Source: Chloroflexota bacterium
Lineage (GTDB): Bacteria; Chloroflexota; Anaerolineae; Promineifilales; Promineifilaceae
DNA: 34,236 nt
Assembly: GCA_003696605.1 (NCBI GenBank)
Contig: RFGV01000237.1
Location: 1 to 34,236, forward strand
Reading direction: 5' to 3'
Of the stretch, positions 1 to 32,940 are shown in pieces. The notes beneath the pieces are model-generated. The model saw only the letters and a list, made by a program, of their open reading frames with translations. It had not been told where the DNA came from and ran no database searches. Each line of letters opens with the position of its first letter. Within the stretch, counting starts at the first letter, position 1. The position numbers were made by a program, and so were the translations under genes.

Positions 1-1668
1 CGGTGGGAAGATTTTCTGGATGGCCTAAATACTTTTTCCACCCGGTTGCGCCATTGGGCCCAGGAAATTGCCCCAGAAGAAACGGCCGTTTCTCCAACCC
101 CAGCCCCATCAACCACTCCCGAAACCACCCCTGAAAACGACACACTCCTCATCATCAACAACACCGCCCCCCAAACCACCCCTCACAGACGAAGAAACAA
201 ACACCTGCCCGACATCTCCCTGCTGGAAGAAGGCGGCACACTTGCCCTGACAGACGAAGAAATAGACGAGAAAAAACGCATCATCGAACAAACCCTGGCC
301 GACTTTGGCCTGCCCGCCACAGTTACCCAAATTCGGCGTGGCCCCGCCGTCACCCAATTTGGCGTAGAACCCGGTTACATAGAACGCCCCGGTCCCGATG
401 GGCAACCCAAACAACAAAAAGTACGCGTTGGCCAGATTGCCGCCCTGCAAAAAGACCTCGCCCTAGCCCTCGCCGCACCCCGCTTACGCATCCAGGCCCC
501 TGTCCCCGGTCAGGGCGTGGTCGGAATCGAAGTTCCTAACGAAGCCGTCAGCATCGTGCGCCTGCGCCCCATCATCGAATCAGACGCATTCTACCAGCTC
601 AAATCCCCACTAGCCGTCGCCCTGGGCCAGGATGTCTCTGGCATACCCGTAGCCGTCGATCTGGCCAAAATGCCCCATCTGCTTATCGCCGGTACCACAG
701 GTTCCGGTAAATCAGTCTGTATGAATGCCCTGATTACCTGCCTGGTCTTCAACAACACACCGGATGAACTTAAACTCATTATGATTGACCCCAAAAAGGT
801 CGAACTCATTCGCTTTAACGGCCTGCCACACTTGATTGGCAATGTAGAAGTAGAAGCAGATCGGGCGGTAGGGGTATTGCGTTGGCTCACAGCCGAAATG
901 GACCGACGGTATGAACTATTTGCCAAAGTAGGTGTCCGCAACCTAAATGGCTATAACCGCAAAGTTAAACGCCAGAAAGAATACACCCCCTTGCCCTATA
1001 TCGCCGTTTTCATTGATGAACTGGCTGACCTGATGCACATTTATCCGGGCGATGTCGAACGAACGCTTTGTCGCCTGGCGCAAATGGCACGCGCCACAGG
1101 CATTCATCTGGTTGTGGCCACACAACGGCCGTCTACCGATGTTATCACTGGCCTTATCAAGGCTAACTTTCCAGCACGTATCTCCTTCGCCGTTGCCTCC
1201 GGCACAGATTCCCGCGTTATTTTGGATACGGTAGGCGCAGAACATCTATTGGGAAAAGGAGACATGCTCTTTCTGGGTCCGGAAGCCAGTGGTCCCATTC
1301 GCGTACAGGGTGTTTTCGTCAATGATACCGAAATTGAGCGTGTTGTTGCCCACTGGCAAAAAGCAATGCCGGACTTTGAACCACAACCCCCTCCCTGGGA
1401 AACACTCATTGCCCGTTTTGCCTTGCTGGAAGAAACAGACAGTTTACTGGAAGCAGCAATCGATCTGGCTCAAAAATATGACACCCTGTCAGCTTCATTT
1501 CTGCAACGACGTTTACGTATTGGTTATCCTCGTGCTGCTCGCATCATGGAACACCTCTATGAAATGGGGCTGGTAGAAGACCCCAAAACAGGTGGGAAAA
1601 CACGTCGCTCTCTGGTAGATGACGATGATGATGACCCCTTGGAAAAGTTCCTCTCGGAAAATAAATAA
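1..1668 (+). CDS. ftsK: DNA translocase FtsK/SpoIIIE, 5'-truncated by window edge
   Basis: Cytoplasmic motor of an FtsK/SpoIIIE DNA translocase, which pumps chromosomal DNA during division and terminus segregation. The frame is open to base 1, so the true start and the N-terminal membrane domain lie outside; about 555 residues are visible. A Pro/Thr-rich linker covers the first ~75 residues. Next come the alpha and beta motor domains, with Walker A GTTGSGKS at about 691-714 and a Walker B-like stretch ending IDELADL near 1010-1030. The C-terminal winged-helix gamma domain (about 1450-1620, containing LQRRLRIGYPRAARIMEHL) is the part that reads polar DNA motifs in known FtsK proteins. The tail has a run of six Asp from GAT/GAC repeats. 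The linker-coding DNA is extremely C-rich just after an ACGGCCGT copy at 82. The TTG at 46 is not the real start. Identity is secure. Confidence 0.96.
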   Translation, partial: RWEDFLDGLNTFSTRLRHWAQEIAPEETAVSPTPAPSTTPETTPENDTLLIINNTAPQTTPHRRRNKHLPDISLLEEGGTLALTDEEIDEKKRIIEQTLADFGLPATVTQIRRGPAVTQFGVEPGYIERPGPDGQPKQQKVRVGQIAALQKDLALALAAPRLRIQAPVPGQGVVGIEVPNEAVSIVRLRPIIESDAFYQLKSPLAVALGQDVSGIPVAVDLAKMPHLLIAGTTGSGKSVCMNALITCLVFNNTPDELKLIMIDPKKVELIRFNGLPHLIGNVEVEADRAVGVLRWLTAEMDRRYELFAKVGVRNLNGYNRKVKRQKEYTPLPYIAVFIDELADLMHIYPGDVERTLCRLAQMARATGIHLVVATQRPSTDVITGLIKANFPARISFAVASGTDSRVILDTVGAEHLLGKGDMLFLGPEASGPIRVQGVFVNDTEIERVVAHWQKAMPDFEPQPPPWETLIARFALLEETDSLLEAAIDLAQKYDTLSASFLQRRLRIGYPRAARIMEHLYEMGLVEDPKTGGKTRRSLVDDDDDDPLEKFLSENK

Positions 1669-1687
1669 TCCTCTCTCCGAATTGGGG

Positions 1688-1693
1688 TATAAT
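1688..1693 (+). promoter_or_regulatory. Possible -10 element for ctaA
   Basis: A perfect TATAAT lies 32 bases before the ctaA start, inside TGGGGTATAAT (1683-1693). The same 11-mer lies on the - strand before dnaG. No good -35 hexamer is seen at 16-18 bases, so this is a weak call from the -10 match and the short intergenic position. Confidence 0.35.
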
Positions 1694-1725
1694 CAGCTGC
1701 GAAAATTTATTGAGTAGAGAATAAC

Positions 1726-2679
1726 ATGACCCGATTCAGACGATTTACGATTTATGCCTGGCTGGTACTGGGCTACACGGTTTTGGTGATTTTATGGGGT
1801 GCATATGTGCGGGCTACCGGTTCTGGTGCAGGGTGTGGTAGTCATTGGCCGTTGTGCAATGGGCAGGTCATTCCTCGTGCCCCTGCTGTAGAAACGCTGG
1901 TTGAGTACTCACACCGGCTAACCAGTGCTTTTTCTGGTTTTTTGGTGTTGGGGCTGCTTTTTGGAGCTTTTCGGCTTTATCCAAAGGGGCATCCGGTGCG
2001 CCGGGGGGCGGTTTTATCTACGTTCTTTATTGTTACTGAGGGGCTTGTTGGTGCTGGTTTGGTGCTGTTTGAGCTGGTTGCTTATAATGAGTCGGCAGCA
2101 CGGGCAATGTGGGGGGCTGCACATCTGGTGAATACATTTTTGTTGCTGGCGGCGCTGACGCTGACGGTGTGGTGGGCAATGGGTGAACGGCCGTTGCGTT
2201 GGCGACAACAAGGTCATATCACCTGGTGGGTTGCCTCCAGTCTGGTAGCTGTACTTATATTGGGTGCCAGTGGGGCCATAACGGCATTAGGTGACACATT
2301 GTATCCTGCAACTTCATTAGCAGAAGGAATTCAACAGGATTTCTCCCCCACAGCCCATTTCCTGATTCGTTTACGGGTTTGGCATCCTACGCTGGCTATT
2401 CTCATTGGTCTTTATCTGGTCATTAGCAGCACGCTGATCTATCGTGCGCGCCCTAATCAACAAACGTTGGTATTTTCACGGATGCTTAAGGTGCTATATA
2501 TTGCTCAATTGCTGGCTGGTGCGTTGAATGTCTTTTTGTTGGCTCCGGTATGGATGCAGTTGGTGCATTTGTTGCTAGCGGATGTGGTGTGGATTACGCT
2601 GGTTATGTTAGCGGCAGCTGCCCTGGCAGAGAGTGTCCCAATTGCCGGGCAGGTGCCTGTTGTGCAACCAGGAGATTGA
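1726..2679 (+). CDS. ctaA: Heme A synthase (CtaA/Cox15 family)
   Basis: Integral membrane enzyme that oxidises the C8 methyl of heme O to the formyl group of heme A, the cofactor of aa3-type cytochrome oxidases. The 317-residue protein shows the family layout of two homologous four-helix halves. The first half has GAYVRATGSGAGCG followed by HWPLCNG, which gives the conserved extracytoplasmic cysteine pair, then the EYSHR motif with its heme-ligand His and a second His in AAHLVN. The second half has RVWHP and LVHLLLAD, supplying the other His pair. The length is typical of bacterial CtaA. The start follows a weak purine-rich GAGTAGAGAA. The DUF72 gene begins 12 bases after the stop, so the two are probably cotranscribed. 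The gene implies that a heme A oxidase is encoded elsewhere. Confidence 0.95.
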   Translation: MTRFRRFTIYAWLVLGYTVLVILWGAYVRATGSGAGCGSHWPLCNGQVIPRAPAVETLVEYSHRLTSAFSGFLVLGLLFGAFRLYPKGHPVRRGAVLSTFFIVTEGLVGAGLVLFELVAYNESAARAMWGAAHLVNTFLLLAALTLTVWWAMGERPLRWRQQGHITWWVASSLVAVLILGASGAITALGDTLYPATSLAEGIQQDFSPTAHFLIRLRVWHPTLAILIGLYLVISSTLIYRARPNQQTLVFSRMLKVLYIAQLLAGALNVFLLAPVWMQLVHLLLADVVWITLVMLAAAALAESVPIAGQVPVVQPGD

Positions 2680-2691
2680 TGGGAAACGGCC

Positions 2692-3477
2692 GTGACTAAC
2701 TGGTATATTGGCACAATGGGGTTTGCCTATAAGGCATGGCGGGGAGTTTTTTATCCTCCTGGCCTATCGCCACGAAATTATTTGGCTTATTATGCCAGTC
2801 GCTTTAATGCTGTGGAAATGGATTCCACTTTTTATGGTGTGCCAACGGCAGAGCGAGTTATGAGATGGACGGCTGTTTCCCCAGTTGGCTTTCGAATTTG
2901 TCCTAAAACCCCCCGTGCCATCACACACGATGCGTCTCTGGACAGAGGCATCATGTTAATGCAGACTTTCATTAAACAGATTCGCCTTTTAGGCAACTAC
3001 CTTGGCCCAATTCTTATCCAATTTCCTCCAAACTTCACCATCCAGAAATATAACCAATTGACCACCTTTTTGAAAACCTTGCCCCCAGATTTACAATTTG
3101 CCATAGAATTTCGGCATCCTTCGTGGGAACAACCAGAAACGGCCGAATTACTCCGTCAGCACAATATCTGTCAGGTAACCGCTGACTACATCTATATGCC
3201 CAAGCAAATCCACCGCACTACGAATTATCTATATCTTCGATTCCTCGGCCCGCACGGTCAGTTCGCCGACAAAAATAAGGAGCAACTAGATAAAACGGCC
3301 GAACTCAAACAATGGTGGCAAAAAATCCAACCACACCTCCCCCATATCCACACCATATACGCTTTCTTCAACAACGACTATGCTGGCTATTCACCAGCCA
3401 CCTGCAACCGATTTCGGGAAATTGTAGGAGAACCAACCACAGAAATCAATCAACCTCAACAAGGGCGCCTCTTTTAG
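2692..3477 (+). CDS. DUF72 (YecE-like) family protein
   Basis: Member of the DUF72/YecE family, TIM-barrel proteins of uncertain function. The 261 residues begin with the family's YIGTMGFAYKAWRGVFYP signature, continue with YYASRFNAVEMDSTFYG, and later contain ILIQFPPNF and AIEFRHPSW, all typical of the family. The C-terminal part has YAFFNNDYAGYSPATC, close to the usual F.N...GyA..NA motif. The start is a GTG lying inside an ACGGCCGT palindrome (2686-2693). An ATG at 2679 is out of frame, and GGAG at 2671-2674 is rather distant. The coding strand is T/G-rich in the first third and strongly C/A-rich in the last third. It follows ctaA closely and converges on nuoN. No specific function can be assigned. 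Confidence 0.9.
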   Translation: MTNWYIGTMGFAYKAWRGVFYPPGLSPRNYLAYYASRFNAVEMDSTFYGVPTAERVMRWTAVSPVGFRICPKTPRAITHDASLDRGIMLMQTFIKQIRLLGNYLGPILIQFPPNFTIQKYNQLTTFLKTLPPDLQFAIEFRHPSWEQPETAELLRQHNICQVTADYIYMPKQIHRTTNYLYLRFLGPHGQFADKNKEQLDKTAELKQWWQKIQPHLPHIHTIYAFFNNDYAGYSPATCNRFREIVGEPTTEINQPQQGRLF

Positions 3478-5052: not shown

Positions 5053-5350
5053 ATTGTCATGCCTTTTGTTCGCGCTTTTTTTCACGATCATACCACAATT
5101 GCGGCAAATGGGAAAAAAACGGAACTGTTTGTTGTAAGTAAAAATTAGAGGGGTAAGGGCGTCTAATGGGTGCATGGGGGTAGATAGTAAACGAAATGGT
5201 AACTGTTTGTTCACGAAATGGTTACTGGAAAACGGCCGTTTCTTTCTATCCTATTATGTACCGGTATTGTCCATTTTGTTGACAAATTCGTTTTGGCAAT
5301 TGTTTTGTGACCCATTGACAAGCCACAAAACACAATAAAGGAGTTCTCGA
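5053..5350. other. Divergent intergenic region nuoN / doxX-like
   Basis: This 298-base gap between divergent genes must hold both promoters. It contains an ACGGCCGT copy (5232-5239), two TTGACAA repeats (5279-5285 and 5315-5321) and an inverted repeat TTGTC-N9-GACAA (5267-5285). No convincing -10 partner lies at the right distance on +, so the promoters are not pinned down. GC skew switches near the palindrome: the 60 bases on its left have 18 G and 6 C. Confidence 0.4.
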
Positions 5351-5836
5351 ATGGATATTTTTAATTTCCTCACTGTGTCCCAATGGCTGGCTCTTTTGCG
5401 GATTGGCATTGGGTTGTGGTGGCTAAAGAGTGTTTTGCACAAACCGTTACGTCAATTTGTGAGTGGTCAAATGGTGAATTGGACATTGGCACTGGCAGAA
5501 AATCATCCTGTACCTGCGTATGGGCGATTAATTCGAGGGCTGGTTGAGCCGAATGCGTCCTGGTTCCCATATCTGATTTTGGTGGGAGAAACGGCCGTTG
5601 CTATCGGTCTTATCTTTGGCCTCTTCACCCCACTCTCCCTCATCGTGGCCATCTTTCTCAACCTGAACTACATCAGCCTGGCAGGCGTTCGCCCCAAGGA
5701 TATCAACATCAACAAAGCTTATCAGTGTGAACAGGGACAAAACTGGAATATGCTCATTGCAGAAATCGTCTTGCTGGTAACAGCGGCTGGTTCAGTATGG
5801 AGCCTGGATAGTGTACTGGGTATCTTTGGTGCGTAA
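5351..5836 (+). CDS. DoxX-like small membrane protein
   Basis: A 161-residue membrane protein with about four predicted helices, resembling the DoxX / TQO small-subunit DoxD-like group. Visible cues are the N-terminal WLALLRIGIGLWWLKSVLHK segment, then PYLILVGETAVAIGLIFGLF and PLSLIVAIFLNLNYISL. Members of this superfamily occur with thiosulfate:quinone oxidoreductase, thioredoxin-like proteins and stress membrane proteins, but many are uncharacterised, so no reaction is claimed. The start is supported by AAAGGAG eight bases before the ATG. The ACGGCCGT at 5591 encodes TAV in a membrane segment and is a sharp GC-skew switch. The DUF5996 gene starts 29 bases after the stop, so the pair is probably an operon. 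Confidence 0.75.
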   Translation: MDIFNFLTVSQWLALLRIGIGLWWLKSVLHKPLRQFVSGQMVNWTLALAENHPVPAYGRLIRGLVEPNASWFPYLILVGETAVAIGLIFGLFTPLSLIVAIFLNLNYISLAGVRPKDININKAYQCEQGQNWNMLIAEIVLLVTAAGSVWSLDSVLGIFGA

Positions 5837-5865: not shown

Positions 5866-6699
5866 ATGACTACACGTCAATTATTCCCCTCATTGGCCGG
5901 GTTTGAACCTACCCGCAAAACTTTACACCTGTATGCAAATGCAGTTGGCGTTATTCCCCGAGCACATGGCATTGCGCACCCTAAATGGTGGCACATCAGC
6001 CTAAAAATACGGCCGGATGGACTGGTTACTGACAATATACCATTGCCACATGGTGGGTCATTCTTTTTGCGAATGGATCTCATTCATCATGTTATTCACC
6101 TGACCACAAGCACTGGGGATGATTTGACATTTAGCATGACAGCGGGACTAACGGCCACTCAAATGGGAGAAAAGCTGATTGCAGCCGTAGCAGATTTGGG
6201 GTTACGGGCGGAGTATGCACGGGAAAAGTTTGAGAATGATGAGCCGCGTGTTTATGAACCGGATAAAGCTGTCGCATTTTTTACGGCCGTTACCAACGCC
6301 GATCTGGTATTTAAGCGGCATCAGTCCATTTTGGACGGAAATTATGGACCTGTACAACTTTGGCCACACGGTTTTGACCTGGCGTTTGAGTGGTTTGGAA
6401 CGCGCACGGAAACGTATGAGGAGCATGGAGAAGTCAAGACATACCCCTCACAACTTAATCTGGGGTTCTATCCCGGTAATGAGCATACCGAACCATATTT
6501 TTATTCTAATCCCTGGCCATTTGAGGCGGACAAACTCCTGGACAAGCCTTTACCTAAAGGAGCGCGTTGGTTTACGGAAGGCTGGCAAGGTTCTATTTTC
6601 CCGTATTCAGAACTGGAAGGGGACGAAAATGCGGCCGAGCGGCTTTTGACGTATGCACGAACGGTATATGAAGTAGCTGCGCCCACGTTATTGGCTTGA
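5866..6699 (+). CDS. DUF5996 family protein
   Basis: A soluble 277-residue protein that I recognise as DUF5996-like. It has an N-terminal TLHLYANAVGVIPRA stretch, then HPKWWHISLKIRPDGLVT, then a C-terminal part with FDLAFEWFGTR and GFYPGNEHTEPYFYSNPWPF, which matches my recollection of this family of unknown function. There is no signal peptide or membrane helix. The start follows AAAAAAGGAG, well spaced before the ATG. It is the second gene after the DoxX-like gene and is followed by a strong terminator, so the transcription unit ends here. The ACGGCCGT at 6283 encodes TAV. I know of no biochemical role. Confidence 0.8.
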   Translation: MTTRQLFPSLAGFEPTRKTLHLYANAVGVIPRAHGIAHPKWWHISLKIRPDGLVTDNIPLPHGGSFFLRMDLIHHVIHLTTSTGDDLTFSMTAGLTATQMGEKLIAAVADLGLRAEYAREKFENDEPRVYEPDKAVAFFTAVTNADLVFKRHQSILDGNYGPVQLWPHGFDLAFEWFGTRTETYEEHGEVKTYPSQLNLGFYPGNEHTEPYFYSNPWPFEADKLLDKPLPKGARWFTEGWQGSIFPYSELEGDENAAERLLTYARTVYEVAAPTLLA

Positions 6700-6780: not shown

Positions 6781-8866
6781 ATTCGGTGCTGACAGGTCTT
6801 ATCCAAACACGATTGCTATGGAAAGTGCTCTGACCAGCCATATCGCCTAAGGCGTCGGAGGTTGTCCAGTTGATGTTACGGCCGTTTCCCAGTTTGCTCC
6901 ACCTGCCCTTGGGAGAGGCTAACACACCAGGACGTACATCTTCAGTGACTACAGCTTTTAGCTCACACCAGCCACGACCATTTTCCACAATGACACGATC
7001 TCCGTGCTGAATTCCTCTGGCAAGGGCGTCTTGGGGGTGAATTTCTACAAATGGTTCACCTTCGCGCTGCAACAAATCAGGCTGATTGGCCATGCTGCTG
7101 GTAACAAAATGATGAGCCGCACCAGAGAGGAGGATAAGAGATTGGTCTGGGGAGAAACGGCCGTTTACCGTCGCTCCCTCTTGGCCTCCCCCATCATCCA
7201 TAGGCGACCAGGCAGGCAAAGGATCTAGCCCTCTGTCCGCAAGCGTTTGCGAATATAACTCTACCTTACCACTGGGAGTGGGGAAACGGCCATCCGCAAA
7301 TGGAACTTCTGGCTCGAACTGTAATGGAATGTATGATTCTGCCTGCAAACGTTCCAGGGTCACATCCCTTAAAGCTGGATTGGAAACGGCCGTAGCCGCC
7401 AACACCTCCGCAATCACCTCATCTGGCGACTGGAACAACCACGATTCAGTAAAACCCATTTCACGGGCTAACAAGCCCATCACTTCCCAATTACTCTTAG
7501 CTTCACCTAGCGGAGCAATAGCCGGACGATTATATCCCAACACAGTATGCCCATACGCCTTGTGCAAATCAGTCTGCTCCAATTGAGAGGTCGCGGGCAA
7601 AACAATATCAGCAAATTCGGCCGTGTCCGTCATAAACAACTCATGCACCACCGTAAACAAATCCTCTCGTTGCAAACCAGCCACCACACGCCCCGCATTG
7701 GGCGCAATCGCTGCCGGATTAGACCCAAACACATACAACGACATAATCGGTGGATCAGTCACCTCACCCAACAATGCTGCCCCCAATCGGTTCATATTCA
7801 CCCATCGTCCCGGCGGGGGGCATTCCGACCAATGATTAACAGCCTCATCATCCCACTGCAAATAACCACTGGTACTATACGCCAACCCTCCCCCACGCAC
7901 ACCATATTGACCAGTTATCGCTGGTAACACACAAATTGCCCGTACTGTTTGCCCCCCATTACGATGACGCTGCAAACCATCAGCAATCTTAATCAACGCC
8001 GGTGTCGTCGTAGCATACAAACGAGCCAATTCAATAATATCCGCCACAGAAATACCAGTTATTTCAGCCACACGCTCTGGTGGATATTCAGCCAATCTCT
8101 CTTTTAGTGCTGGCCAACCAACAGTGTGCGTCATCAACCACGCCTCATTATGCCATCCTTCCCGCACAATCACATGCGCCAGTCCCAAGGCCAAAGCGCC
8201 ATCAGTTGCCGGTTTGGGCGCAATATGCCAGTCAGCCCCTTTGGCCGTGCGAGTACGACGTGGATCGATAACAATCAGCTTGCATCCTGCCCGTTGGGCA
8301 TCTTTCAGATGAGGCATAAAGTGAGGGGCAGTACTAACTGGATTGTGCCCCCAAATAATCACCAGGCGACTGTCACGAACATGGTGATAGGGTGGGCTAT
8401 GCCTGACCCCTAACGTACAAGTCACAGCAAATTCGGCAGCTGCCCCACAAATAGCCCGATCCAGTTGGCTGGCTCCTAGCCGATTCCAAAAGCGAGCACT
8501 GCTCACTGTCATCTGTACCAGGCCGAGTGTACCACTATAACTATACGGTAAAACTGCTTCAGATCCGTATTGCCTGATAATTTCACGCCAGCGGTGGCCA
8601 ATTTCAGCAATAGCTTCTTGCCAGCTAATACGTTTCCACTGACCACTTCCCTTTGGCCCAGTGCGCCGTAATGGATATAACAGGCGGTCGGGATGATAGA
8701 CGTGGTTAAGATACGGCCGTACCTTTGCACACAACCACCCTTGTGTAACAGGATGTTCCGAATCTGCATAAAATCGACGAATACGGCCGTTTTCCACCTC
8801 AGCCACAAACCCACAAGTATCCGGACAATCATGCGGACACACACCCCTAACCCGTTGCACAGCCAT
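6779..8866 (-). CDS. Molybdopterin-dependent oxidoreductase (formate dehydrogenase/DMSO reductase family)
   Basis: A single-subunit-sized (695 aa) member of the molybdopterin oxidoreductase family. The N-terminus binds a [4Fe-4S] cluster: Cys10, Cys14 and Cys18 in VCPHDCPDTC, and Cys46 in GWLCAKVRP. Molybdopterin-binding signatures follow, including VIWGHNPVSTAPHF, LIVIDPRRTRTAKGADW and VLPATSQLEQTD. The C-terminal molydop-binding barrel starts near LILLSGAAHHF. Cys140 in RAICGAAAEF is at the place where formate dehydrogenases carry the metal-ligand Sec/Cys; that is inference. There is no Tat signal, so it is probably cytoplasmic. The start is ATG 8866, four bases after a perfect AGGAGG; a GTG at 8869 is too close. 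The phosphoesterase gene ends 9 bases upstream, so the two are probably cotranscribed. The substrate is unknown. Confidence 0.9.
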   Translation of the reverse strand: MAVQRVRGVCPHDCPDTCGFVAEVENGRIRRFYADSEHPVTQGWLCAKVRPYLNHVYHPDRLLYPLRRTGPKGSGQWKRISWQEAIAEIGHRWREIIRQYGSEAVLPYSYSGTLGLVQMTVSSARFWNRLGASQLDRAICGAAAEFAVTCTLGVRHSPPYHHVRDSRLVIIWGHNPVSTAPHFMPHLKDAQRAGCKLIVIDPRRTRTAKGADWHIAPKPATDGALALGLAHVIVREGWHNEAWLMTHTVGWPALKERLAEYPPERVAEITGISVADIIELARLYATTTPALIKIADGLQRHRNGGQTVRAICVLPAITGQYGVRGGGLAYSTSGYLQWDDEAVNHWSECPPPGRWVNMNRLGAALLGEVTDPPIMSLYVFGSNPAAIAPNAGRVVAGLQREDLFTVVHELFMTDTAEFADIVLPATSQLEQTDLHKAYGHTVLGYNRPAIAPLGEAKSNWEVMGLLAREMGFTESWLFQSPDEVIAEVLAATAVSNPALRDVTLERLQAESYIPLQFEPEVPFADGRFPTPSGKVELYSQTLADRGLDPLPAWSPMDDGGGQEGATVNGRFSPDQSLILLSGAAHHFVTSSMANQPDLLQREGEPFVEIHPQDALARGIQHGDRVIVENGRGWCELKAVVTEDVRPGVLASPKGRWSKLGNGRNINWTTSDALGDMAGQSTFHSNRVWIRPVSTE

Positions 8867-23564: not shown

Positions 23565-25268
23565 CTATGTCAAATAATCCCGCAAGGATTTACTGCGGCT
23601 GGGATGCCGCAACTTTCGCAACGCCTTGGCCTCGATCTGGCGGATACGTTCACGCGTCACGCCAAATGTCTTCCCAACTTCCTCCAGCGTATGGTCCTTC
23701 CCGTCATTTAGGCCAAAACGCATTTCCAATACTTCTCGTTCCCGATCACTCAGGTAATTCAGCACACTGCGAATTTGCTCCCGCAACAACTCCTTAGAAG
23801 CAGCATCAACCGGCTCAACCACACTTTCATCTTCGATAAAGTCACCCAGCTCTGTTGAATCCTCTGTATTGCCAACCGGCGTTTCCAGTGACATCGGATC
23901 CATGGAGATACGCAAGATATCTCGAATTTTGCTTACCGATTGTCGCCACTTACGGGCCAAAACCGGCTCCAGTGGCTCCCCGGTAGTCAGATGATGGCGC
24001 ACAACCTCTTTCTCTTCCGCTGTCAGGTAATCCAGTTCCAGCGCCAACTCTTCTACCGATGGCTCATGACCCAGCTTTTGCACCAGGTCACGCTGAATGC
24101 GGACAATCTTGTTGATTGTTTCATACATATGTACCGGAATACGAATTGTGCGTGCTTGGTCGGCAATGGCGCGACTTACTGCCTGACGAATCCACCATGT
24201 GGCATAAGTGCTAAACTTGTACCCTTTCGTATGGTCAAATTTCTCAACGGCCCGTAATAGCCCTACATTTCCTTCCTGAATAAGGTCAAGCAATTGGATA
24301 CCACGCCCCATATACCGCTTGGCAACACTCACAACCAGCCGCAAGTTGGCACGGGTAAGGCTGGACTTGGCTTCTTCGGCCAGATGGTAGATCATGAATT
24401 CGTTATATTCAAGAGCAACTGTATCTTGAGAAAGCCAGTTGTGGAAAGTATCCAGATCTGGTAAACGGCCGTATTCCTTCAAATACGCCTCCAACCGTTC
24501 GGCCATACTGGCTGGCAACAAATACAAAGCCGTAAACACTTCAAACACCTGTTCTGCCAATTCTGTCCAGGCGTCATCCTGCCCCCAATTCCCCTCATTC
24601 AAATAACCGCGCAAATAAGATCCTTCAACTTCCTGCCAATTCCCTCGAATCTTGCGGGCTTCATGCAACAACGCCAACAAATCCGGCGGTTCAACCTCTA
24701 TCTTTTCAGCGGCGGCACAACTCCTGTCCCAGTATTCCAGCAAATTACGATAATTCACCAACATCTTTTGGAAATGAATACTGGTATCATCATCATAAGA
24801 CTCGGAAATTTCATCCGATGCCAACTCATCCAGCACCGAAGCTGCTGCCAGTTGCGTCGAAAGCCAAATCTCCTGTTCTGCCGTCAATAATGGTACCTGC
24901 CCAATCTCTTTCAGATAGGTATGTACCGGATCATTTTCCACATCTCCAGAAACATAATCCATGTCTTCGTCGTCCTCAGCGTCTAACGGATCATCAAGCA
25001 CATCTAGCAAACTGTTATCACCCAAATCTTCAATTGTTTCACCCGAATCAGAAACAATTCGAATCCCCATCTTTTGCAAACGCGAATACAAGAGTTCTGC
25101 CTGTTCTTCATCGGCAGAAGCAAGAATTGTCTGCACATCTGCCTCACTAATCTGACGTGAACGACGTGCTTTCTTGACCAGTGCCTCAATATCAATTCGT
25201 TCTTCTTCTACGTTCAATTCTTCATCCAAGTCATTATCTTCCAGTTCGGGATCGTATAGAGTATTCAT
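23565..25268 (-). CDS. rpoD: Primary RNA polymerase sigma factor (sigma-70)
   Basis: Housekeeping sigma factor, 567 residues. A short acidic N-terminus with a region 1.1-like helical stretch precedes region 1.2 ([21 protein letters not shown], near residue 110). A non-conserved insert of about 150 residues precedes region 2 ([53 protein letters not shown]). Region 3 follows, then region 4 with [20 protein letters not shown] as the -35-binding helix-turn-helix. I choose ATG 25268 ([10 protein letters not shown]), preceded by AGGAAG; a TTG at 25310 is possible but unlike the family. It lies 60 bases after dnaG, the classic macromolecular-synthesis pairing. Confidence 0.96.
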
Positions 25269-25328: not shown

Positions 25329-27311
25329 CTATAACAAATTGTTTGCGGAGTCGTCAGCTTTTCTGCGGCTAACGGCTGACATTGCATCTCGGGCACGATT
25401 GATGCTGAAAACGATGAGGGGCAATCTCCGCAACTGTTCCTTGTAGGTCTCAATTGCTTCGATATCGTTCATCTCCTTTGCTTCATCAAACAATTGTTTT
25501 ACTTCGTTTAGCAAGCGGCGGGTCTTTTCTAATCGCCAGTCCAGAACTGATTTGGCCAGTTCATCGGCCAGACGTTCCAATTCGGAGTCAGGTGTGGGTG
25601 GGAATGTGAGCAACGTTTGCACCCGCTCCTGAAGCACGTTATCTAAACTATCGCACAAATCCTCAATCGTGGCAAACGGAGAGGCGTGGCTGATCTGGCT
25701 TAGGTGACGGAAGAGTGCTTTATCTTCGGCTGTGGTAAAGTCGGCTTCACGCACGGGTGGTTGACTGTTTTGGGTTAATCGTTGATTAACGCTTGTAAGT
25801 AGTTGTGGATGGCGAAGGCATTGGCTGAGGTAATTGGCTTCGCGTTTGTGGGTAGCAATGATGCCACCATTGATTACGGCCGTTTCCCCATCGCCGTTTC
25901 TCCTCTTACCCACGCCCACAGCCACCGAACGGACTGGTACTTCCGAAGAAGACGGCCGTTTTCGCCCCCCATCCTCTACCCGAATCTGTCGCAAAGCCCG
26001 CTCATCCACATGCAAAGCACGCGCCAACATCTGCCAATAATGATCACGCTCCACCGGATCCAACACATCCCGAATCAGCGGAATCACTCGCCTGGCAGCA
26101 GCCGTTTTCGCCTTACCATCATTCAAATCCAGGTTACACGTCACCACATCAATTACATACGCCACCACCGGCTGCGCTTTTGCCAGCAACTTCGGCCAAG
26201 CCGTTACATCTTCCCGAATCAACTTATCCGGATCGTAGCCAACTGGCAACGTCACAACACGAATATCTGCCTGCAAACGCCCTTCCTGCCGCAACAAACC
26301 CCGGGCATCAAACCGAATATTTACCTCCCGATCCAACGACTCCCGCGCCACCTCCAAACTCCGCATTGTGGCCTTAAACCCAGCGGCATCGGCATCCAAC
26401 GCCAGTACAAACTGCTTTGTGTACCGTTTCAGCAACTGTAACTGTTCATGGGTCAATGCCGTTCCCATCTGAGCCACCACATTCCGAAAACCTGCCTGCC
26501 ATGCCTGAATCACATCCATATACCCTTCAACAATCACTGCCTGACGGGCTTCTCGGATATGCCGTTTGGCCATATCCAGCCCAAATAACAGATGGCTTTT
26601 GTTGAACAAGTCGGTTTGTGGTGAATTCAGGTACTTTGGCACACCGTCTTTATCCAAAGTACGTGCGCCAAACCCCACAACACGGCCGTTTACATCCCGT
26701 ATTGGAATCATCAGCCGATTACGAAACCGGTCATACTTTGTTCCCCGCTCTTCATTAACCGTCAACAAACCGGCTGCCAGCAACTCATCATCATCATATC
26801 CTTGTGCATTAAAATGAGTCCGGCACGCATCCCATGAATCCAGTGCATACCCCAACCCAAAAGCCGCTATCGTTTCCTCCTGCAGACCACGCTCCAACAC
26901 ATATCGGCGGGCATATTCAGCCTGTGGCGCATGTAAAAACAGTTGATGAAAATAATCAGCTGCAGCAGCCAACAATCGCTCCTGTCGGGTCACTTTGGCC
27001 TGTTTTGCCTGCTCCATGGGCTTGGTTTCTTCCAATGACACACCAGCCCGCTTGGCCAAATGTTCCAATGCTTCCCGAAAGTCCCATCCTTCTTTTTTCA
27101 TCAAAAAGGAGAAAACATCACCACCTTCGGCGCATGCACCAAAGCAATGCCATGTTTGTGTTTCGGGAAATACGTAAAAAGAGGGGGTACGCGTGTTTGG
27201 ATGGAAGGGGCAAAAACCGGCATAGTTACGCCCAGATTTGCGTAGAGCAACATGCTCCGATACAACATCGACAATATCCAGGCGATTCTTGATTTCTTCC
27301 GTTACGCGCAT
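25329..27311 (-). CDS. dnaG: DNA primase
   Basis: Bacterial replicative primase, 660 residues from ATG 27311 (MRVTEEIKNRLDIVDVV, the usual N-terminus); a TTG 13 codons upstream is less likely. The N-terminal zinc domain has Cys34 and His37 (CPFH) and then Cys56 and Cys60 in HCFGACAEGGD. The second pair is C-x3-C, where the usual primase spacing is C-x2-C. The TOPRIM core shows VIVEGYMDVIQA and LALDADAAG. The C-terminal helicase-interacting region contains two ACGGCCGT copies (25876, 25952) in a linker of low conservation; a third copy is at 26682 (NGRVVGFG). It is the first gene of the dnaG-rpoD unit. Confidence 0.96.
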   Translation of the reverse strand: MRVTEEIKNRLDIVDVVSEHVALRKSGRNYAGFCPFHPNTRTPSFYVFPETQTWHCFGACAEGGDVFSFLMKKEGWDFREALEHLAKRAGVSLEETKPMEQAKQAKVTRQERLLAAAADYFHQLFLHAPQAEYARRYVLERGLQEETIAAFGLGYALDSWDACRTHFNAQGYDDDELLAAGLLTVNEERGTKYDRFRNRLMIPIRDVNGRVVGFGARTLDKDGVPKYLNSPQTDLFNKSHLLFGLDMAKRHIREARQAVIVEGYMDVIQAWQAGFRNVVAQMGTALTHEQLQLLKRYTKQFVLALDADAAGFKATMRSLEVARESLDREVNIRFDARGLLRQEGRLQADIRVVTLPVGYDPDKLIREDVTAWPKLLAKAQPVVAYVIDVVTCNLDLNDGKAKTAAARRVIPLIRDVLDPVERDHYWQMLARALHVDERALRQIRVEDGGRKRPSSSEVPVRSVAVGVGKRRNGDGETAVINGGIIATHKREANYLSQCLRHPQLLTSVNQRLTQNSQPPVREADFTTAEDKALFRHLSQISHASPFATIEDLCDSLDNVLQERVQTLLTFPPTPDSELERLADELAKSVLDWRLEKTRRLLNEVKQLFDEAKEMNDIEAIETYKEQLRRLPLIVFSINRARDAMSAVSRRKADDSANNLL

Positions 27312-27560: not shown

Positions 27561-30533
27561 CTAGAATCCTTCCAGGTGGGAAAGGTCGGCAATGCCTTTG
27601 GGAAGATCGGCTATGTTTTGTAACAAGGCCAGGCGATTTTGCCGAACGGCCGTATTTTCATCCATCACCAACACATTATCAAAGAAACGGGTAATCACTG
27701 GCTCCATTTGCCGCAAGCTTTCCACAAAGGTTTCAATCGAACCATTCATGGCAGCGGCAGCAGTTTGCCAGGCAGCAGCCAATGCCTTTTCCTCATCCAG
27801 GGTAAATGCTTCTGGGCGCAGCTCATACCGCTCATCCAGCCCGCGCGTAATACGAACACAGCGGGCATAAGCGTCCAACAATTGTGCCCAGTCTGGCTGT
27901 TGAGTCAGTTCATGGAGTGCGGATACAGTACGTGCCGCAGCGTACGGGTTATGCCCCTGTTCGGCCAATACTGCCTTTACAACAGAGGCCGGATATCCTT
28001 GTTCGCGCAGCATGTTTTCCAAACGGCCGTTTATAAACGCCATCACCTCCGCCAGCACCGTTTGATCACCCACAATGGGCAACAGACGGCCAGCTTCTGT
28101 CAAGCCTGCTCGCAAATCAAATTCCGTCTTATTCGCAATCAGATTTTCAATTAGTTGCAGAGCGGCTCGCCGCAGCGCAAACGGATCATTAGAGCCTTTG
28201 GGCGCAAGCCCCACAGTGAACAATCCCATCAGACTATCCAGCCGGTCAGCAATTGCGAGGACCAGACCGGGCCGTGTATGGCTGACACTTTCGTATTGTT
28301 CAGCAATGGCTTGGGCAACTGTTTCTGGCTCACCACTAATCCGCGCATAATGGCCACCCATAATGCCTTGCAAAGAGGTCATTTCTATAACCATTTGCGT
28401 AGCCAGGTCGGCTTTGGCCAGGGAAGCAGCACGGCTGGCAACGGCCGTTTCTGTCTCATCCAGCCCCAACATTTTCGCAATAACCGGTGTCAGCCGTTCC
28501 AAACGATGCGTTTTATCCAGCATTGAACCCAAATCAGACTGGAAGGTAAGGGTAGCCAGCTTGGGTACAAACTCTTCCAGCTTGTGCTTGCGATCGTTGT
28601 TGTAGAAGAATTCAGCATCAGCAAAACGAGCCCGAATCACATGCTCGTTGCCATCCACCACCACGTCCAGATGCCGTTCATCTCCATTCCGTACAGAGAT
28701 AAAGTAGGGCAGCAAACGGCCGTTTCCATCATACACCGGAAAATAGCGCTGATGTTTTCGCATCACAGCCACCAACACCTCTGCCGGCAAAGCCAAAAAC
28801 CGCTCTTCAAACTGCCCCCGCAAAGGAGTCGGCCGTTCCACCAAATTTGCCACTTCATTCAACAAATCCGGATCGGCCGGAATCTTTCCTCCCTTTTCTG
28901 CAGCCAATTTCTCCGACACCGTCGTAATCAACTCCTTGCGCCGCTCCACATCAATCACAATACCATTACGACGCATGATCACTTCATAATTTACGGCATC
29001 ATCAATTGGCAATTCCGGCGAACCAAACGGCCGTAATCCCCGGCTCTTGCGGCCACTCACCACGCCAGCATAACTAAACGGAACCACATCTGGCCCATAC
29101 ATCGCCACAATCCAGCGAATAGGACGACTAAACGCCACATTCGTATGATTCCATCGCATACTCTTTTGGAACTTCAAGGCAGCAATCAACTTCGGCAACT
29201 CTTCAGCCAGCACGGCAGCTGTTGGCCGACCTGCCTCATGCACCACTGCCGCCACATACCGTTTACTTCCTTCGTCAACCACCTTCAAATCGGCCACATC
29301 CACCCCTTTGCTACGGGCAAACCCAATGGCCGCCTTCGTAGGATTTCCATCCGCATCAAAGGCACGATCAGCAGGTGGTCCCTTCACTTCCGTTTCCAGA
29401 TCAGCCTGGCGTCCGGCCAGGTTACGCACCATCACAGCCAAACGGCGTGGCGTTCCTTGTACCAGCAAACTGCTATAACTCAACCGCAACCGTGCCAACA
29501 TTTCCGGCACAAGCTGCCGCAACTGCTCTAAAGCCGACTCCAAATCAGCTACCGGCAACTCTTCCGTGCCAATTTCTAACAAAAACGCTTGTGGCTGCTC
29601 AATCTGGGCAAATTGCACCCGGGGCAACGAAAATGTCTGGCGGGATTGTGACCACATATCCATCAATGGATATTCCAGCTGTTGCCGCTGCTCCAAATAC
29701 AACTCAGAAATACGCCGGGCTACGTTTCGCATCCGCCGAAAATAATTGGCACGCTCCGTTACACCAATCGCCCCGCGCGTATCCATAATATTAAACAAAT
29801 GGGAGCATTTCAGATTGTAGTCATGTGCGGGTACAACCAGCCCAGCCTCAAGACACCGAATGGCTTCCCTTTCGTAGGTATCGTACACTTGCCGCAGCGC
29901 ATCTACATCAGCCAGTTCAAAATAGTATTTGCAGTGTTCAATTTCGGCCTGAAGCAAAATATCCTGGTAAAGGATGCCCGCGCCATAATCCATTTGCCAT
30001 ACACTGTCTTTTCCTTGTAATGCCAGGGCAATACGGTCGAGGCCATAGGTGATCTCTACTGAAACGGGGTCAAGTTCCTGGCCTCCTGCCTGTTGAAAAT
30101 AGGTAAACTGGGTGATTTCCTGACCGTCTAGCCAGACTTCCCAGCCCAATCCCCAGGCACCAAGTGCTGGGCTTTCCCAGTTGTCTTCGACAAAGCGAAT
30201 GTCGTGTTGCCGGGGATCGATACCAATGGCTTCCAGGCTTTTCAAGTAGAGTTCTTGTGGATTGCCCGGATCGGGCTTGAGGATGACTTGGAGCTGGTGG
30301 TGCATTTGCATTCGGTTGGGATTGTCGCCGAAACGGCCGTCATCCGGACGGATGCTTGGCTCAACATATACTACATTCCATGGTTCGGGTCCCAACACAC
30401 GTAATGCTGTTGCCGGATTCATTGTACCGGCACCCACCTGCACATTGTAGGGCTGTTGCACCAGGCAACCACGATCTTTCCAGTATTCCAATAAACGTAA
30501 AATAATGTCTTGAAAGCTGAGTTGGCTTGTCAT
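27561..30533 (-). CDS. glyQS: Glycyl-tRNA synthetase, fused alpha and beta subunits
   Basis: Charges tRNA-Gly in the cytoplasm. The 990 residues join a complete class II alpha subunit (about residues 1-305) to a complete beta subunit. The alpha part shows [19 protein letters not shown], then [19 protein letters not shown] and [19 protein letters not shown]. The beta part starts at [18 protein letters not shown] and ends with a DALR-type anticodon-binding region. The subunits are separate genes in E. coli; fused forms are known in some lineages, such as Chlamydia. There is no stop or frameshift at the junction. Six ACGGCCGT copies are present, including 28441 (ETAV) and 28716 (NGRL). The start has AGGA only two or three bases before the ATG, which is close. 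Confidence 0.95.
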
Positions 30534-30634: not shown

Positions 30635-30690
30635 TTACCAATGCGTTAATTTACAAGGGGAAATTATAACATGCCCCCTTAAATAGGGCA

Positions 30691-31479
30691 TCAGGATTCA
30701 TCTTTGGGGGCAAAAAGTGCGGCTTCGCGGCGCAGACGGTGCAGAAAATCTACAGATTTGAGGTTGCGCTCCAGGATGTGGGTAAGGTAATGGTGCATGA
30801 GTGTTTCAAGTTCATGGTGTAACGGCCGTTTCAGTCGCAGAACGGCCACTGTTTCCCACGGACGTGTTTGCAAATACCGCAACACTTTCACCGCCACGGC
30901 CGAAATTGGCTTTGCGCTTCTATCCTTGTCCTGGCATTTAGGACACAATATTCCACCTAATTCTGTTGAGAAAAACTGGTCCTGTTCCTGAATAGCCTCA
31001 TCACATCCTATACAACGGAACAACTGGGGTTGAAAACCGGCCAATGCCAGCAAATGAAGCTCATAATATCGCGCAGCCAGCAACAAATCATCGGCCGTTT
31101 CCAGCCAGCCAAGCCCCTCTGCCAGTAATTTGTACATACCACCATGCGGATCTTCTTCCACAGTAAAGCGATCTAGCAATTCGACTGCATAAGATGCATA
31201 CGTTGCTCGCACCAGATCCTCACGCAAGGCAGGATATGCCTGTATCATTTCAGCCTGCGTAATAATGTCCATATCCCGGCCTTGTGCCAACAAAAACCTG
31301 GATCGCATAAACAATTCCACGTGGCCTGTCTTTCGGCTTTGTGGCTTGCGTGCACCTTTGGCAATAGCCCGAATTTTGCCATATTCCCGGCTGAACAGTG
31401 TCAGCAGCCGGTCTGCCTCACCAAAATCAGTTCGGCGCAAAACAATGGCTTCGGTACGAAACGTTCTTTCTCTGGGCAT
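30691..31479 (-). CDS. recO: DNA repair protein RecO
   Basis: RecFOR-pathway mediator that helps load RecA on SSB-coated DNA and anneals strands. The 262 residues start with the OB-fold pattern RTEAIVLRRTDFGEADRLLTLFSREYGKIRAIAKGAR, then VELFMRSRF and the helical domain. A zinc site is formed by CIGC and CPKC. The length is typical. It begins 9 bases after cdd, so the two are probably cotranscribed. RecR, its partner in the pathway, is encoded 2 kb further right. The ACGGCCGT at 30822 encodes the RP of LKRPLHH. Confidence 0.94.
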   Translation of the reverse strand: MPRERTFRTEAIVLRRTDFGEADRLLTLFSREYGKIRAIAKGARKPQSRKTGHVELFMRSRFLLAQGRDMDIITQAEMIQAYPALREDLVRATYASYAVELLDRFTVEEDPHGGMYKLLAEGLGWLETADDLLLAARYYELHLLALAGFQPQLFRCIGCDEAIQEQDQFFSTELGGILCPKCQDKDRSAKPISAVAVKVLRYLQTRPWETVAVLRLKRPLHHELETLMHHYLTHILERNLKSVDFLHRLRREAALFAPKDES

Positions 31480-31488
31480 AATCGTCTT

Positions 31489-31899
31489 TTATTGGCCGGG
31501 TAAATGTTCCGGGCCAAAATGGTCAGGCAACAAGGTATGGAGTGATGTCTGACGCACATTTCCGGCACTGTCGCATAAAAATATGGGAATATCGCCGGCA
31601 AATTCAACAAGGACCTGACGGCAAGCACCACATGGGGAGCCCCCGTTGTCGGTGCAAATGGCCACAGCGAGGATTTGTTGTTGCCCTTCGGAGACCATTT
31701 TGAAAACGGCCGTTCTTTCCGCGCACATCGTTAAACCATACGAGGCATTTTCTACATTCACACCAGTAAAAATACGGCCGTCTGCTGCCAGCAACGCCGC
31801 CCCCACTGCATATTGGGAATACGGAGCATATGCCTGTGCCCGAGCCGCACAAGCTGCTGCTACCAATGCTTCCTGTTCTGCTTTCGTTACCACACCCAT
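31489..31899 (-). CDS. cdd: Cytidine deaminase
   Basis: Homotetramer-type cytidine deaminase of the pyrimidine salvage pathway (cytidine or deoxycytidine to uridine or deoxyuridine), 136 residues. Visible motifs are YAPYSQYAVGAALL, then GVNVENASYGLTMCAERTA with the catalytic CAE (zinc Cys and proton-shuttling Glu), and SPCGACRQVLVEF with the other two zinc Cys. The start ATG 31899 lies 6 bases after the stop of the glmU-like gene, which carries an AGAGGA. Two ACGGCCGT copies (31706, 31774) fall inside conserved motifs: CAERTAV and DGRIFTGV. Confidence 0.96.
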   Translation of the reverse strand: MGVVTKAEQEALVAAACAARAQAYAPYSQYAVGAALLAADGRIFTGVNVENASYGLTMCAERTAVFKMVSEGQQQILAVAICTDNGGSPCGACRQVLVEFAGDIPIFLCDSAGNVRQTSLHTLLPDHFGPEHLPGQ

Positions 31900-31905
31900 A
31901 TCCGT

Positions 31906-32940
31906 CTAATCCTCTCCACGAACAACCGTAAACGGCATCACCTGTGTCCCTGACGCCAATTCCACCTTTTCGACAACAGCCTGAGTTACAATACACCCAT
32001 CCCCCAACCGGGCATCTCGTACAATCGCATTTGGGCCAATCACACAATCCTCACCAATCACCGTTTGTCCCTGCACATAACTATTCGGCCAAATAATAGT
32101 ATCCTGCCCAATTTGCGCTGTATCGTCAATATAAACCGTCGCTGGATCGATCAAAGTCACTCCTTGCTCCAGCCAATACCGATTGACACGCCGCCGAAAT
32201 GCTTGCTCCACCACGGCCAATTCTGCCCGCGTTCCCGCACCCAAACACTCATCCGGGTCTTCCGCCACCAATGCTTCTACACCCCGTCCCTGTCCAACAG
32301 CCATTTCAATCAGGTCAGTCAAATAATATTCCGGGCCAGAACGTGCCTGATGCAAGGGTAATTGGTCCAAATTATTCCAAAGCCATTCTGCATCAAAACA
32401 GTAAATACCGGCATTTTGTTCCCGAATAGCCAGTAATTCGGTGGCATTGGGGCGCCGACGCGCATCAGTCACTTCAACAATCTCAACAACACGGCCGTTT
32501 CCATCCCGCACCACACGCCCAAAAGAGCTTTTCGGATCCCCAATCACAGACAACATGACAACAGCCACACCCGTCTCTGCCTGCACCGTTGCCAATTTCT
32601 GCATCGTACCGGCCCGCAAGAGCGGCATATCCGCATAAGTCACCAACACCTGCTGGGTGCGCCCCCGCAATACAGAACGTGCCATTTTGGTTGCATGGCC
32701 AGTACCAAGCTGCTCTGGCTGTTCTACATAAAGCGCCTGCTCACCCAAAAGAGCCCTTACTGCCTCGCCGCCTGATGGCCCAATAACCAACACCGGAGGA
32801 ACGTGGGAAACGGCCGTAGCCGCTGCAAACACATGCGCCACCATCGGCCTCCCCCCCACCTCATGCAAAATCTTCTGCCGTTTCGACCGCATACGCGTTC
32901 CCTGCCCGGCAGCCAAAATCACAACACCCAACTCACTCAT
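31906..32940 (-). CDS. GlmU-like UDP-GlcNAc pyrophosphorylase with short beta-helix
   Basis: A nucleotidyltransferase resembling the N-terminal uridylyltransferase half of GlmU. It has VVILAAGQGTRMRSKRQKILHEVGGRPM at the N-terminus, then QLGTGHATKMA and LVTYADMPLLR (metal-binding Asp), ATELLAIREQNAGIYCFD and GPEYYLTDLIEMA. A short left-handed beta-helix follows (about residues 255-344: IGQDTIIWPNSYV, IGEDCVIGPNAIV) and the protein then stops. At 344 residues it lacks the distal coils with the acetyltransferase site of the ~450-residue bifunctional GlmU. It probably makes the UDP-sugar step only. I choose ATG 32940; TTG 32973 is possible but lies in the tRNA terminator T tract. The ribosome site is weak. 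Confidence 0.85.
   Translation of the reverse strand: MSELGVVILAAGQGTRMRSKRQKILHEVGGRPMVAHVFAAATAVSHVPPVLVIGPSGGEAVRALLGEQALYVEQPEQLGTGHATKMARSVLRGRTQQVLVTYADMPLLRAGTMQKLATVQAETGVAVVMLSVIGDPKSSFGRVVRDGNGRVVEIVEVTDARRRPNATELLAIREQNAGIYCFDAEWLWNNLDQLPLHQARSGPEYYLTDLIEMAVGQGRGVEALVAEDPDECLGAGTRAELAVVEQAFRRRVNRYWLEQGVTLIDPATVYIDDTAQIGQDTIIWPNSYVQGQTVIGEDCVIGPNAIVRDARLGDGCIVTQAVVEKVELASGTQVMPFTVVRGED

What the first reader, a model, noticed from the sequence alone, without database searches (positions are those of the whole stretch)
82..32817. A HIP1-like highly iterated palindrome, ACGGCCGT, about 70-fold over chance
By hand count there are 36 exact copies in 34.2 kb (about one per 950 bases), against about 0.5 expected. 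The preferred flanks are themselves palindromic (toward GGAAACGGCCGTTTCC). Copies occur on both sides of operon borders and in unrelated genes, so this is a genome-scale property rather than a gene-family repeat. Known parallels are HIP1 (GCGATCGC) in cyanobacteria and the uptake sequences of Neisseria and Pasteurellaceae. I know of no described counterpart with this sequence. It could be the target of a methyltransferase, an uptake or recombination mark, or a chromosome-organising site.
Basis: seen in the sequence. Interest (0 to 1): 0.88.

Follow-up and report, generated by a model that had tools for sequence, protein, structure and literature searches.

The report
Genome-wide repeated palindrome in Chloroflexota
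A short mirror-image DNA word is scattered thousands of times through the genomes of many uncultured Chloroflexota bacteria of one order and some viruses, much like the HIP1 word of cyanobacteria but with a different spelling, and its outer letters change between lineages and leave a mark on the proteins.

Summary
The window has 36 ACGGCCGT against 0.45 expected. The whole genome has 5,641 in 4.92 Mb, against 201 for the reversed control. Codon usage does not explain it: 32 in genes, 2.3 after synonymous shuffling. It is a HIP1-like highly iterated palindrome outside cyanobacteria. The core CGGCCG outnumbers its reversed control in 48 of 52 genomes of the window's family and 4 of 4 of the sister family. 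The outer pair differs by lineage: ACGGCCGT, TCGGCCGA, GCGGCCGC or none preferred; one genome has TGCCGGCA, three show no excess. Sites outlast their surroundings. The octamer inflates dialect-specific tripeptides. A few viral contigs carry it as densely as hosts or more. Excess is 29- to 108-fold in the 30 word-bearing samples computed. I favour a biased repair or conversion drive at the CGGCCG core. The enzyme is not identified: cytosine-5 methylase and Vsr do not follow the trait, a DUF1156-like methylase does only partly. Methylation was not measured.

The parts
82..89 (.). ACGGCCGT copy 1
1125..1132 (.). ACGGCCGT copy 2
2187..2194 (.). ACGGCCGT copy 3
2686..2693 (.). ACGGCCGT copy 4
5232..5239 (.). 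ACGGCCGT copy 5
5591..5598 (.). ACGGCCGT copy 6
6283..6290 (.). ACGGCCGT copy 7
6878..6885 (.). ACGGCCGT copy 8
7157..7164 (.). ACGGCCGT copy 9
7386..7393 (.). ACGGCCGT copy 10
8713..8720 (.). ACGGCCGT copy 11
8783..8790 (.). ACGGCCGT copy 12
12908..12915 (.). ACGGCCGT copy 13
14117..14124 (.). ACGGCCGT copy 14
16292..16299 (.). ACGGCCGT copy 15
16394..16401 (.). ACGGCCGT copy 16
17825..17832 (.). ACGGCCGT copy 17
18896..18903 (.). ACGGCCGT copy 18
19351..19358 (.). ACGGCCGT copy 19
23512..23519 (.). ACGGCCGT copy 20
23528..23535 (.). ACGGCCGT copy 21
24465..24472 (.). ACGGCCGT copy 22
25876..25883 (.). ACGGCCGT copy 23
25952..25959 (.). ACGGCCGT copy 24
26682..26689 (.). ACGGCCGT copy 25
27646..27653 (.). 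ACGGCCGT copy 26 (in the fused glycyl-tRNA synthetase gene)
28023..28030 (.). ACGGCCGT copy 27 (same gene)
28441..28448 (.). ACGGCCGT copy 28 (same gene)
28716..28723 (.). ACGGCCGT copy 29 (same gene)
29027..29034 (.). ACGGCCGT copy 30 (same gene)
30333..30340 (.). ACGGCCGT copy 31 (same gene)
30822..30829 (.). ACGGCCGT copy 32
31706..31713 (.). ACGGCCGT copy 33
31774..31781 (.). ACGGCCGT copy 34
32491..32498 (.). ACGGCCGT copy 35
32810..32817 (.). ACGGCCGT copy 36

Best explanation
It is a highly iterated palindrome: a HIP1-like, genome-wide word with core CGGCCG and a lineage-specific outer base pair. SHOWN: enrichment, dialects, site conservation, dialect-specific tripeptide inflation, and presence in some viral contigs. 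INFERRED: it is kept up by a biased correction process inside the cell. When one strand spells the word and the other does not (after a replication error, damage or recombination), a symmetric (dimeric) DNA-binding enzyme system resolves the mismatch toward the word. New copies are thus kept, lost copies restored, and any DNA replicated in the cell, phage included, approaches an excess of some tens-fold up to about 100-fold. Changes in the enzyme's outer-base preference give the dialects; its loss gives the genomes without the word. It may be coupled to a modification of the core, as Elhai proposed for HIP1, but that step is not shown.
For: Excess in whole genomes. O/E 29-108 (ln 3.4-4.7) in all 30 word-bearing samples computed, hosts of four words and six viral stretches; under selection I would expect it to track population size (inference). 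Similar density inside and outside genes in G024 (1.89 and 1.73/kb) and G001 (2.15 and 1.76/kb), gap CV 0.95 and 0.97. T-A-V tripeptides are spelled as the word in 170 of 173 (G024) and 160 of 164 (G001), against 29 and 27 expected from codon usage. One-base inner variants are depleted in A-dialect genomes (0.58 of expectation; 0.98 in three genomes without the word). Sites persist: 31 of 47 kept at 74% identity where control octamers keep 10%. All 10 single inner differences at sites are transitions, against 58% in the control. The octamers in excess are self-complementary, which suggests a symmetric reader.
Against: No enzyme was found that follows the trait. MutL is present also in the four genomes without CGGCCG excess. 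Equilibrium counts alone cannot separate a repair bias from selection. The inner-variant depletion is modest: 0.82 in the G dialect, 0.65 in T, and 0.72 also in the sister family, which lacks the octamer. Densities outside genes differ in smaller samples: G014 0.53 against 1.57/kb (8 non-coding copies), G031 none of 27, window 2.23 against 0.99 (4 copies). Gaps in the two T-dialect samples are more regular than random (CV 0.61 and 0.67, 26 and 33 gaps), and G024 has fewer gaps under 50 bases than random (5.1% against 8.9%). All six viral stretches come from a scan for clustered copies, which favours dense ones. The excess is not strictly uniform (29-108).
Confidence: 0.48

Rival explanations
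1. Selection for a binding site: a nucleoid, replication or segregation protein binds the palindrome every 0.5-1 kb, and cells with more sites do better.
For: Strong site conservation; weak palindromic flank preference out to about 16 bases; even supply in G001 (35-47 per 20 kb); gaps more regular than random in the two T-dialect samples (CV 0.61, 0.67).
Against: Thousands of weak sites would each need selection. Spacing is near random in the window, G024, G001 and G014 (CV 0.95-1.04), with 25-52 copies per 20 kb in G024. Some viral contigs are as rich or richer, and the excess is alike in hosts and viruses. The T-dialect GlyRS gene has 3 of its 4 sites at columns where no other row has a core.
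Confidence: 0.24
2. Methylation-directed mismatch repair as in Elhai's HIP1 model: a cognate methylase marks the core and repair then favours the word.
For: Same anatomy as HIP1: core hexamer, variable outer pair, deviations concentrated at the outer bases in the A dialect, alternate words in relatives. GGCC, the centre of the word, is a methylase target (GGm4CC) in Synechocystis (PMC6560206 passages). MutL is found in 51 of 58 genomes. A DUF1156-like methylase occurs in 29 of 33 octamer-dialect genomes and in 11 of 19 others (Fisher p 0.019, not corrected for kinship).
Against: No PF00145 in 10 of the 23 octamer-rich genomes scanned, the own genome included. G005 has no match to PF00145, PF01555 or the DUF1156-like enzyme, yet CGGCCG is 3.5-fold over its control. 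The DUF1156-like enzyme is not found in G012 (95% complete, 6,514 copies) and is present in low-octamer genus g4 (8 of 8). Elhai too notes HIP1-rich genomes without the CGATCG methylase, so a missing gene is not decisive.
Confidence: 0.2
3. DNA uptake signal: cells prefer to take up DNA with the word, and recombination spreads it.
For: Density about 1 per kb and lineage dialects resemble uptake sequences of Neisseriaceae and Pasteurellaceae (recalled).
Against: The word is a perfect palindrome; it is dense in a viral contig with head, portal and terminase genes, and phage DNA enters by injection (general knowledge). No uptake genes were searched.
Confidence: 0.06
4. By-product of codon, dipeptide or dinucleotide usage.
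For: None found.
Against: Synonymous shuffling gives 2.3, 45 and 35 copies against 32, 335 and 272 observed (window, G024, G001); T-A-V is itself 4- to 8-fold over amino-acid expectation in the four A-dialect samples and not in the eight other groups.
Confidence: 0.02

Closest known systems
HIP1 (GCGATCGC) and alternate HIPs of cyanobacteria (Elhai 2015, PMC4390886; abstract, sections 7, 8, 12, 13, 19 and first part of 18 seen)
   Same: Palindromic octamer around a hexamer core, about 500-2500 per Mb, genome-wide, extended palindromic flanks, deviations at the outer bases, replacement by other GC-rich palindromes in some relatives (including TCGATCGA, an outer-pair change).
   Different: Core CGGCCG instead of CGATCG; Chloroflexota; outer pair A/T, T/A or G/C by genus; no cognate methylase identified; dense in some viral contigs; effect on tripeptides measured here. 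I did not test cyanobacterial phages or proteomes for the same.
DNA uptake sequences (DUS/USS; recalled, search listing only)
   Same: Dense short word, lineage dialects.
   Different: Palindromic; dense in some viral contigs.
Very short patch (Vsr) repair bias in E. coli (Bhagwat and McClelland 1992, seen only as a reference title)
   Same: A repair bias proposed to change word frequencies.
   Different: Vsr found in only 7 of 52 genomes and not in the own genome.
CCGG excess in Helicobacter (PMC4687349, passages)
   Same: Palindromic site over-represented with no explanation given.
   Different: Observed/expected about 1.4-1.5 there, 29- to 108-fold here.

Membership tests
Highly iterated palindrome (HIP) class | One palindromic octamer dominates and occurs about 500-2500 times per Mb | tested here: met
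   36 against 3 for the next palindromes; 5,641 in 4.92 Mb, 1,147 per Mb
Highly iterated palindrome (HIP) class | Genome-wide, in and outside genes | tested here: met
Highly iterated palindrome (HIP) class | One-base deviations concentrated at the outer bases | tested here: met
   A dialect outer 2.32, inner 0.58 of expectation; weak in T (1.20, 0.65), not seen in the G dialect (0.98, 0.82)
Highly iterated palindrome (HIP) class | Replaced by another GC-rich palindrome in some relatives | tested here: met
   TCGGCCGA, GCGGCCGC, TGCCGGCA
Highly iterated palindrome (HIP) class | Cognate methyltransferase(s) in the genome | tested here: inconclusive
   no PF00145 match in the own genome; DUF1156-like candidate only partly correlated; PF02086, PF02384 and PF07669 not searched
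HIP1 proper | Sequence GCGATCGC, CGATCG core | tested here: not met
   the word is ACGGCCGT
DNA uptake sequence | Asymmetric word (recalled) | tested here: not met
   the octamers in excess are perfect palindromes
DNA uptake sequence | Preferential uptake through a pilin receptor | not tested
   no search for competence genes
Vsr-type repair bias | Vsr endonuclease present | tested here: not met
   7 of 52 genomes, own genome without
REP-like repeat family | Longer homologous unit around the word | tested here: not met
   the 36 flanks look unrelated beyond a weak preference

The most novel reading that the evidence does not exclude
A dimeric enzyme system that drives one palindrome through all DNA replicated in the cell, chromosome and phage alike, by sequence-biased mismatch resolution without a cytosine-5 methylase; its specificity has drifted at the outer base pair, so each lineage's genome and proteome carry the signature of its own dialect.
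Probability: 0.3. Interest if true: 0.92.

Novelty: new variant of a known kind. Interest (0 to 1): 0.8.

Why it matters
HIP1 was described in 1995 (reference seen) and its function is still debated. A second phylum with its own word, with gain, change and loss of the word inside one family, gives natural contrasts to find the enzyme and to tell drive from selection. It also shows a DNA word that inflates specific tripeptides in proteins, and a signature that might help to assign viruses to hosts.

Tried and rejected
Cytosine-5 methylase as the common cause: rejected; 17 of 35 genomes have one, the own genome none. PF01555 methylases: 31 of 35 genomes have a match at E 0.001; in the own genome two look like DNA methylases, a ParB-like/MTase protein beside a terminase-like ORF (my reading) and the DUF1156-like one; subfamilies were not compared across genomes. 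Vsr: rejected. Loss of MutL as the cause of loss of the word: rejected. DUF1156-like enzyme as the determinant: not established; the label rests on matches below the curated cut-offs of Pfam and NCBIfam. An earlier count said 29 of 31 octamer genomes; the recount replaces it: 26 of 30 genomes at 0.4 copies per kb or more, 29 of 33 with the T and G dialects. That threshold counts G017 and G025, which have mostly bare cores. Partial or split hits were counted as present (G004, G007, G010, G015, G027, G030, G063, G064, G071). The 12 listed of 119 plasmid records with a relative of the enzyme name DUF1156 or hypothetical proteins or DNA methyltransferases at 26-30% identity, which gives no specificity; phages gave one weak hit; solved structures only general methyltransferase matches. 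T-dialect viral contigs: 7 stretches of 1.7-12.6 kb with 4-7 TCGGCCGA each, of which three are the cluster searched for; not conclusive. Relatives of the L293 protein: only itself. The octamer as a text search gave 196 papers; the 20 listed look unrelated from title and abstract start.

Weak points: stretches of 15-200 kb stand for genomes in the dialect calls; G009, G011, G020 and G033 were sampled in short contigs (15-39 kb each). AAA, the tripeptide of the G dialect, is raised also in G011 (42 against 15) and the window (20 against 9), so it is a weaker marker than T-A-V. Gene calls were a simple longest-ORF rule. The GlyRS tree has 8 of 23 inner branches open. L001, which has one stop in the translated stretch, and L007 were left out of the GlyRS site table.
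Full report
WHAT IS THERE. The window has 36 exact ACGGCCGT, with 0.45 expected from dinucleotide shuffles and 0.65 from a second-order Markov model with the copies masked. No other palindromic octamer has more than 3 copies. The genes around are ordinary: ftsK, ctaA, a nuo (complex I) operon, rpoD, dnaG, a fused glycyl-tRNA synthetase, recO, recR. Copies lie in unrelated genes and between them. In genes the count is 32 against 2.3 after synonymous shuffling, in all frames.

WHOLE GENOME AND KIN. The own genome (4,916,558 bases, 705 contigs) has 5,641 copies; the reversed control has 201. The family search returned 52 genomes in 22 genera. 30 have at least 0.4 copies per kb, up to 2.1 per kb, with G061 at 15,176. 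The sister family (4 genomes) and 20 genomes of other families of the class have 0 to 287. The core CGGCCG against its reversed control GCCGGC is above 1 in 48 of 52 family genomes (own 8,703 to 1,401; G017 21,019 to 132; genus g4 only 1.1-2.6). It is above 1 in 4 of 4 of the sister family (1.29-1.75) and in 1 of 20 others (G047, 1.87). The trait therefore looks like one of the order, with four exceptions: G009, G011, G020, G027. Named loci found with the GlyRS protein are mostly Chloroflexota (Anaerolineae) metagenome bins. I recall the family as Promineifilaceae of GTDB; no call shows this.

DIALECTS. Stretches of 15-200 kb per genome show which octamer is in excess. Most genera use ACGGCCGT (counts). 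G007, G031 and the named bin L051 use TCGGCCGA (for L051). G014 uses GCGGCCGC: 110 in 80 kb, with outer pair G/C in 110 of 127 cores. G017 and G005 have mostly bare cores: ACGGCCGT makes up 1,727 of 21,019 and 1,189 of 25,568 CGGCCG; the sister-family genomes show no outer preference of that kind; G025 is mixed. G011 has TGCCGGCA (3,665 genome-wide) and few CGGCCG (447). A GlyRS tree puts L053, which lacks the word, inside a supported group (97/82) with three A-dialect bins. L053 is a 9.4-kb locus, so this loss is tentative. Weak flank preferences extend each dialect palindromically: T,T,C,C after the A octamer in the window, weaker in other genomes; A or T after the T octamer; G then A after the G octamer.

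CONSERVATION. In the fused GlyRS gene (23 rows, the others 63-78% identical to the window), some copies sit at the same column in most rows: column 193 in 19 of 22, column 2524 in 14 of 20, column 2907 in 14 of 20; many other columns have the word in 1-3 rows only. Between species pairs (nine compared) the word is kept in 31 of 47 cases at 74% identity (control octamers with six G/C: 10%). It is kept in 43 of 47 at 85% (control 34%) and 42 of 44 at 91% (control 59%). The weakest contrast is G034-G021, 23 of 28 against 65%. Sites that differ often differ by more than one base: 14 of 48 by one; the 10 at inner bases are all transitions, against 58% in overlapping control octamers (small sample).

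EFFECT ON PROTEINS. T-A-V, one reading of ACGGCCGT, occurs 173 times in 59,371 codons of G024 and 164 times in 41,943 of G001, against 26 and 20 from amino-acid frequencies (46 and 38 from dipeptides). 170 of 173 and 160 of 164 are spelled as the word. In the T dialect SA[E/D] is inflated (32 against 9), in G014 AAA (71 against 17; 67 of the 71 spelled as the word). AAA is also raised in G011 (42 against 15) and the window (20 against 9), so that marker is weaker. T-A-V is not inflated in the T or G dialect, the sister family or the genomes without the word. In GlyRS (18 A-dialect rows), rows without the word at a site differ in the residues in 186 of 223 cases. In frame 0 only 1 row has T-A-V without the word, against 69 with it. 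In frames 1 and 2 rows with the same residues but no word are commoner (column 1514: 12 with, 6 without; columns 1132 and 1315: 11 and 9 rows with G-R and no word, first residue not compared).

VIRUSES. A scan of viral contigs for three clustered copies gave 18 contigs. In most the density is low; L293, L302, L306 and L308 carry 2.0-3.7 copies per kb, against at most 2.1 in whole host genomes and 2.8 in a short host locus (L011). L302 encodes head, portal and terminase proteins. Four relatives of its head protein (39-55% identity) have 0 ACGGCCGT and 0-3 CGGCCG. Of six viral records only that of L308 has a PF01555 match. The scan favours dense contigs, so the frequency among phages is unknown, and hosts were not established.

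MECHANISM. With copies masked, the excess is 29- to 108-fold (ln 3.4-4.7) in all 30 word-bearing samples I chose: own window, other A genomes, T, G and TGCCGGCA genomes, and six viral stretches. A like factor in bacteria and viruses, and in and outside genes in the two largest samples, is what a biochemical bias would give; selection should scale with population size (inference). Against this, gaps in the two T-dialect samples are more regular than random (CV 0.61, 0.67), and G014 and G031 have few or no copies outside genes. Inner one-base variants are depleted in A-dialect genomes (109 against 188) and not in three genomes without the word (31 against 32), though the sister family shows 28 against 39. 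I infer a symmetric enzyme system that resolves mismatches toward the word. Inference stops there: no gene found follows the trait. Cytosine-5 methylases are missing in 10 of 23 octamer-rich genomes among the 35 scanned. Vsr is in 7 of 52. MutL is in 51 of 58, including the four exceptions. A DUF1156-like methylase (own genome C558:8175-10136; DPPY and SAM motifs; PF01555 3.9e-14) is in 29 of 33 octamer-dialect genomes and 11 of 19 others. It is not found in genus g6 (0 of 5) nor in G017, which have mostly bare cores, but also not in G012 with 6,514 copies. It stays a candidate.

COMPARISON. The system works like HIP1 of cyanobacteria: same density, core-plus-outer-pair build, outer-base deviations and alternate words (PMC4390886, sections read and the first part of section 18). 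It is not HIP1 by sequence or host, and the cognate methylase that Elhai reports for words in excess is not identified here; he too notes HIP1-rich genomes without the CGATCG methylase. GGCC, its centre, is methylated to GGm4CC in Synechocystis (passages), which makes a methylation link worth testing. My paper searches found no report of such a word in Chloroflexota; preprints and closed papers were not searchable.

Noticed in passing
G014 and G017, whole genomes: GCCGGC is nearly absent (51 in 8.0 Mb, 132 in 4.1 Mb) while CGGCCG is abundant; perhaps restriction avoidance of GCCGGC or CCGG.
   Followed up: no
L035 and L038 (other Anaerolineae): Hexamer GCCGGC in excess (122 against 30; 175 against 46), perhaps a separate HIP-like word.
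   Followed up: no
L031-L034, L080: CCGCGG in mild excess in several Anaerolineae loci.
   Followed up: no
L301 (viral contig): Carries 8 ACGGCCGT and 6 TCGGCCGA together, and 34 CTCGAG against 13 expected.
   Followed up: no
L186 (G007): The DUF1156-like gene matches in two overlapping pieces in different frames, so it may be broken or frameshifted in this T-dialect genome.
   Followed up: partly
window 27561-30533: Glycyl-tRNA synthetase alpha and beta subunits fused in one 990-residue protein; full-length matches also in Nocardia and Endomicrobium.
   Followed up: no
L015: A record labelled Candidatus Entotheonella carries a GlyRS 67% identical to the window's, without the word: transfer or mislabelling.
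   Followed up: no
L138 (own genome C117): ParB-like/methylase protein next to a terminase-like ORF, prophage-like by my reading of the sequence.
   Followed up: no
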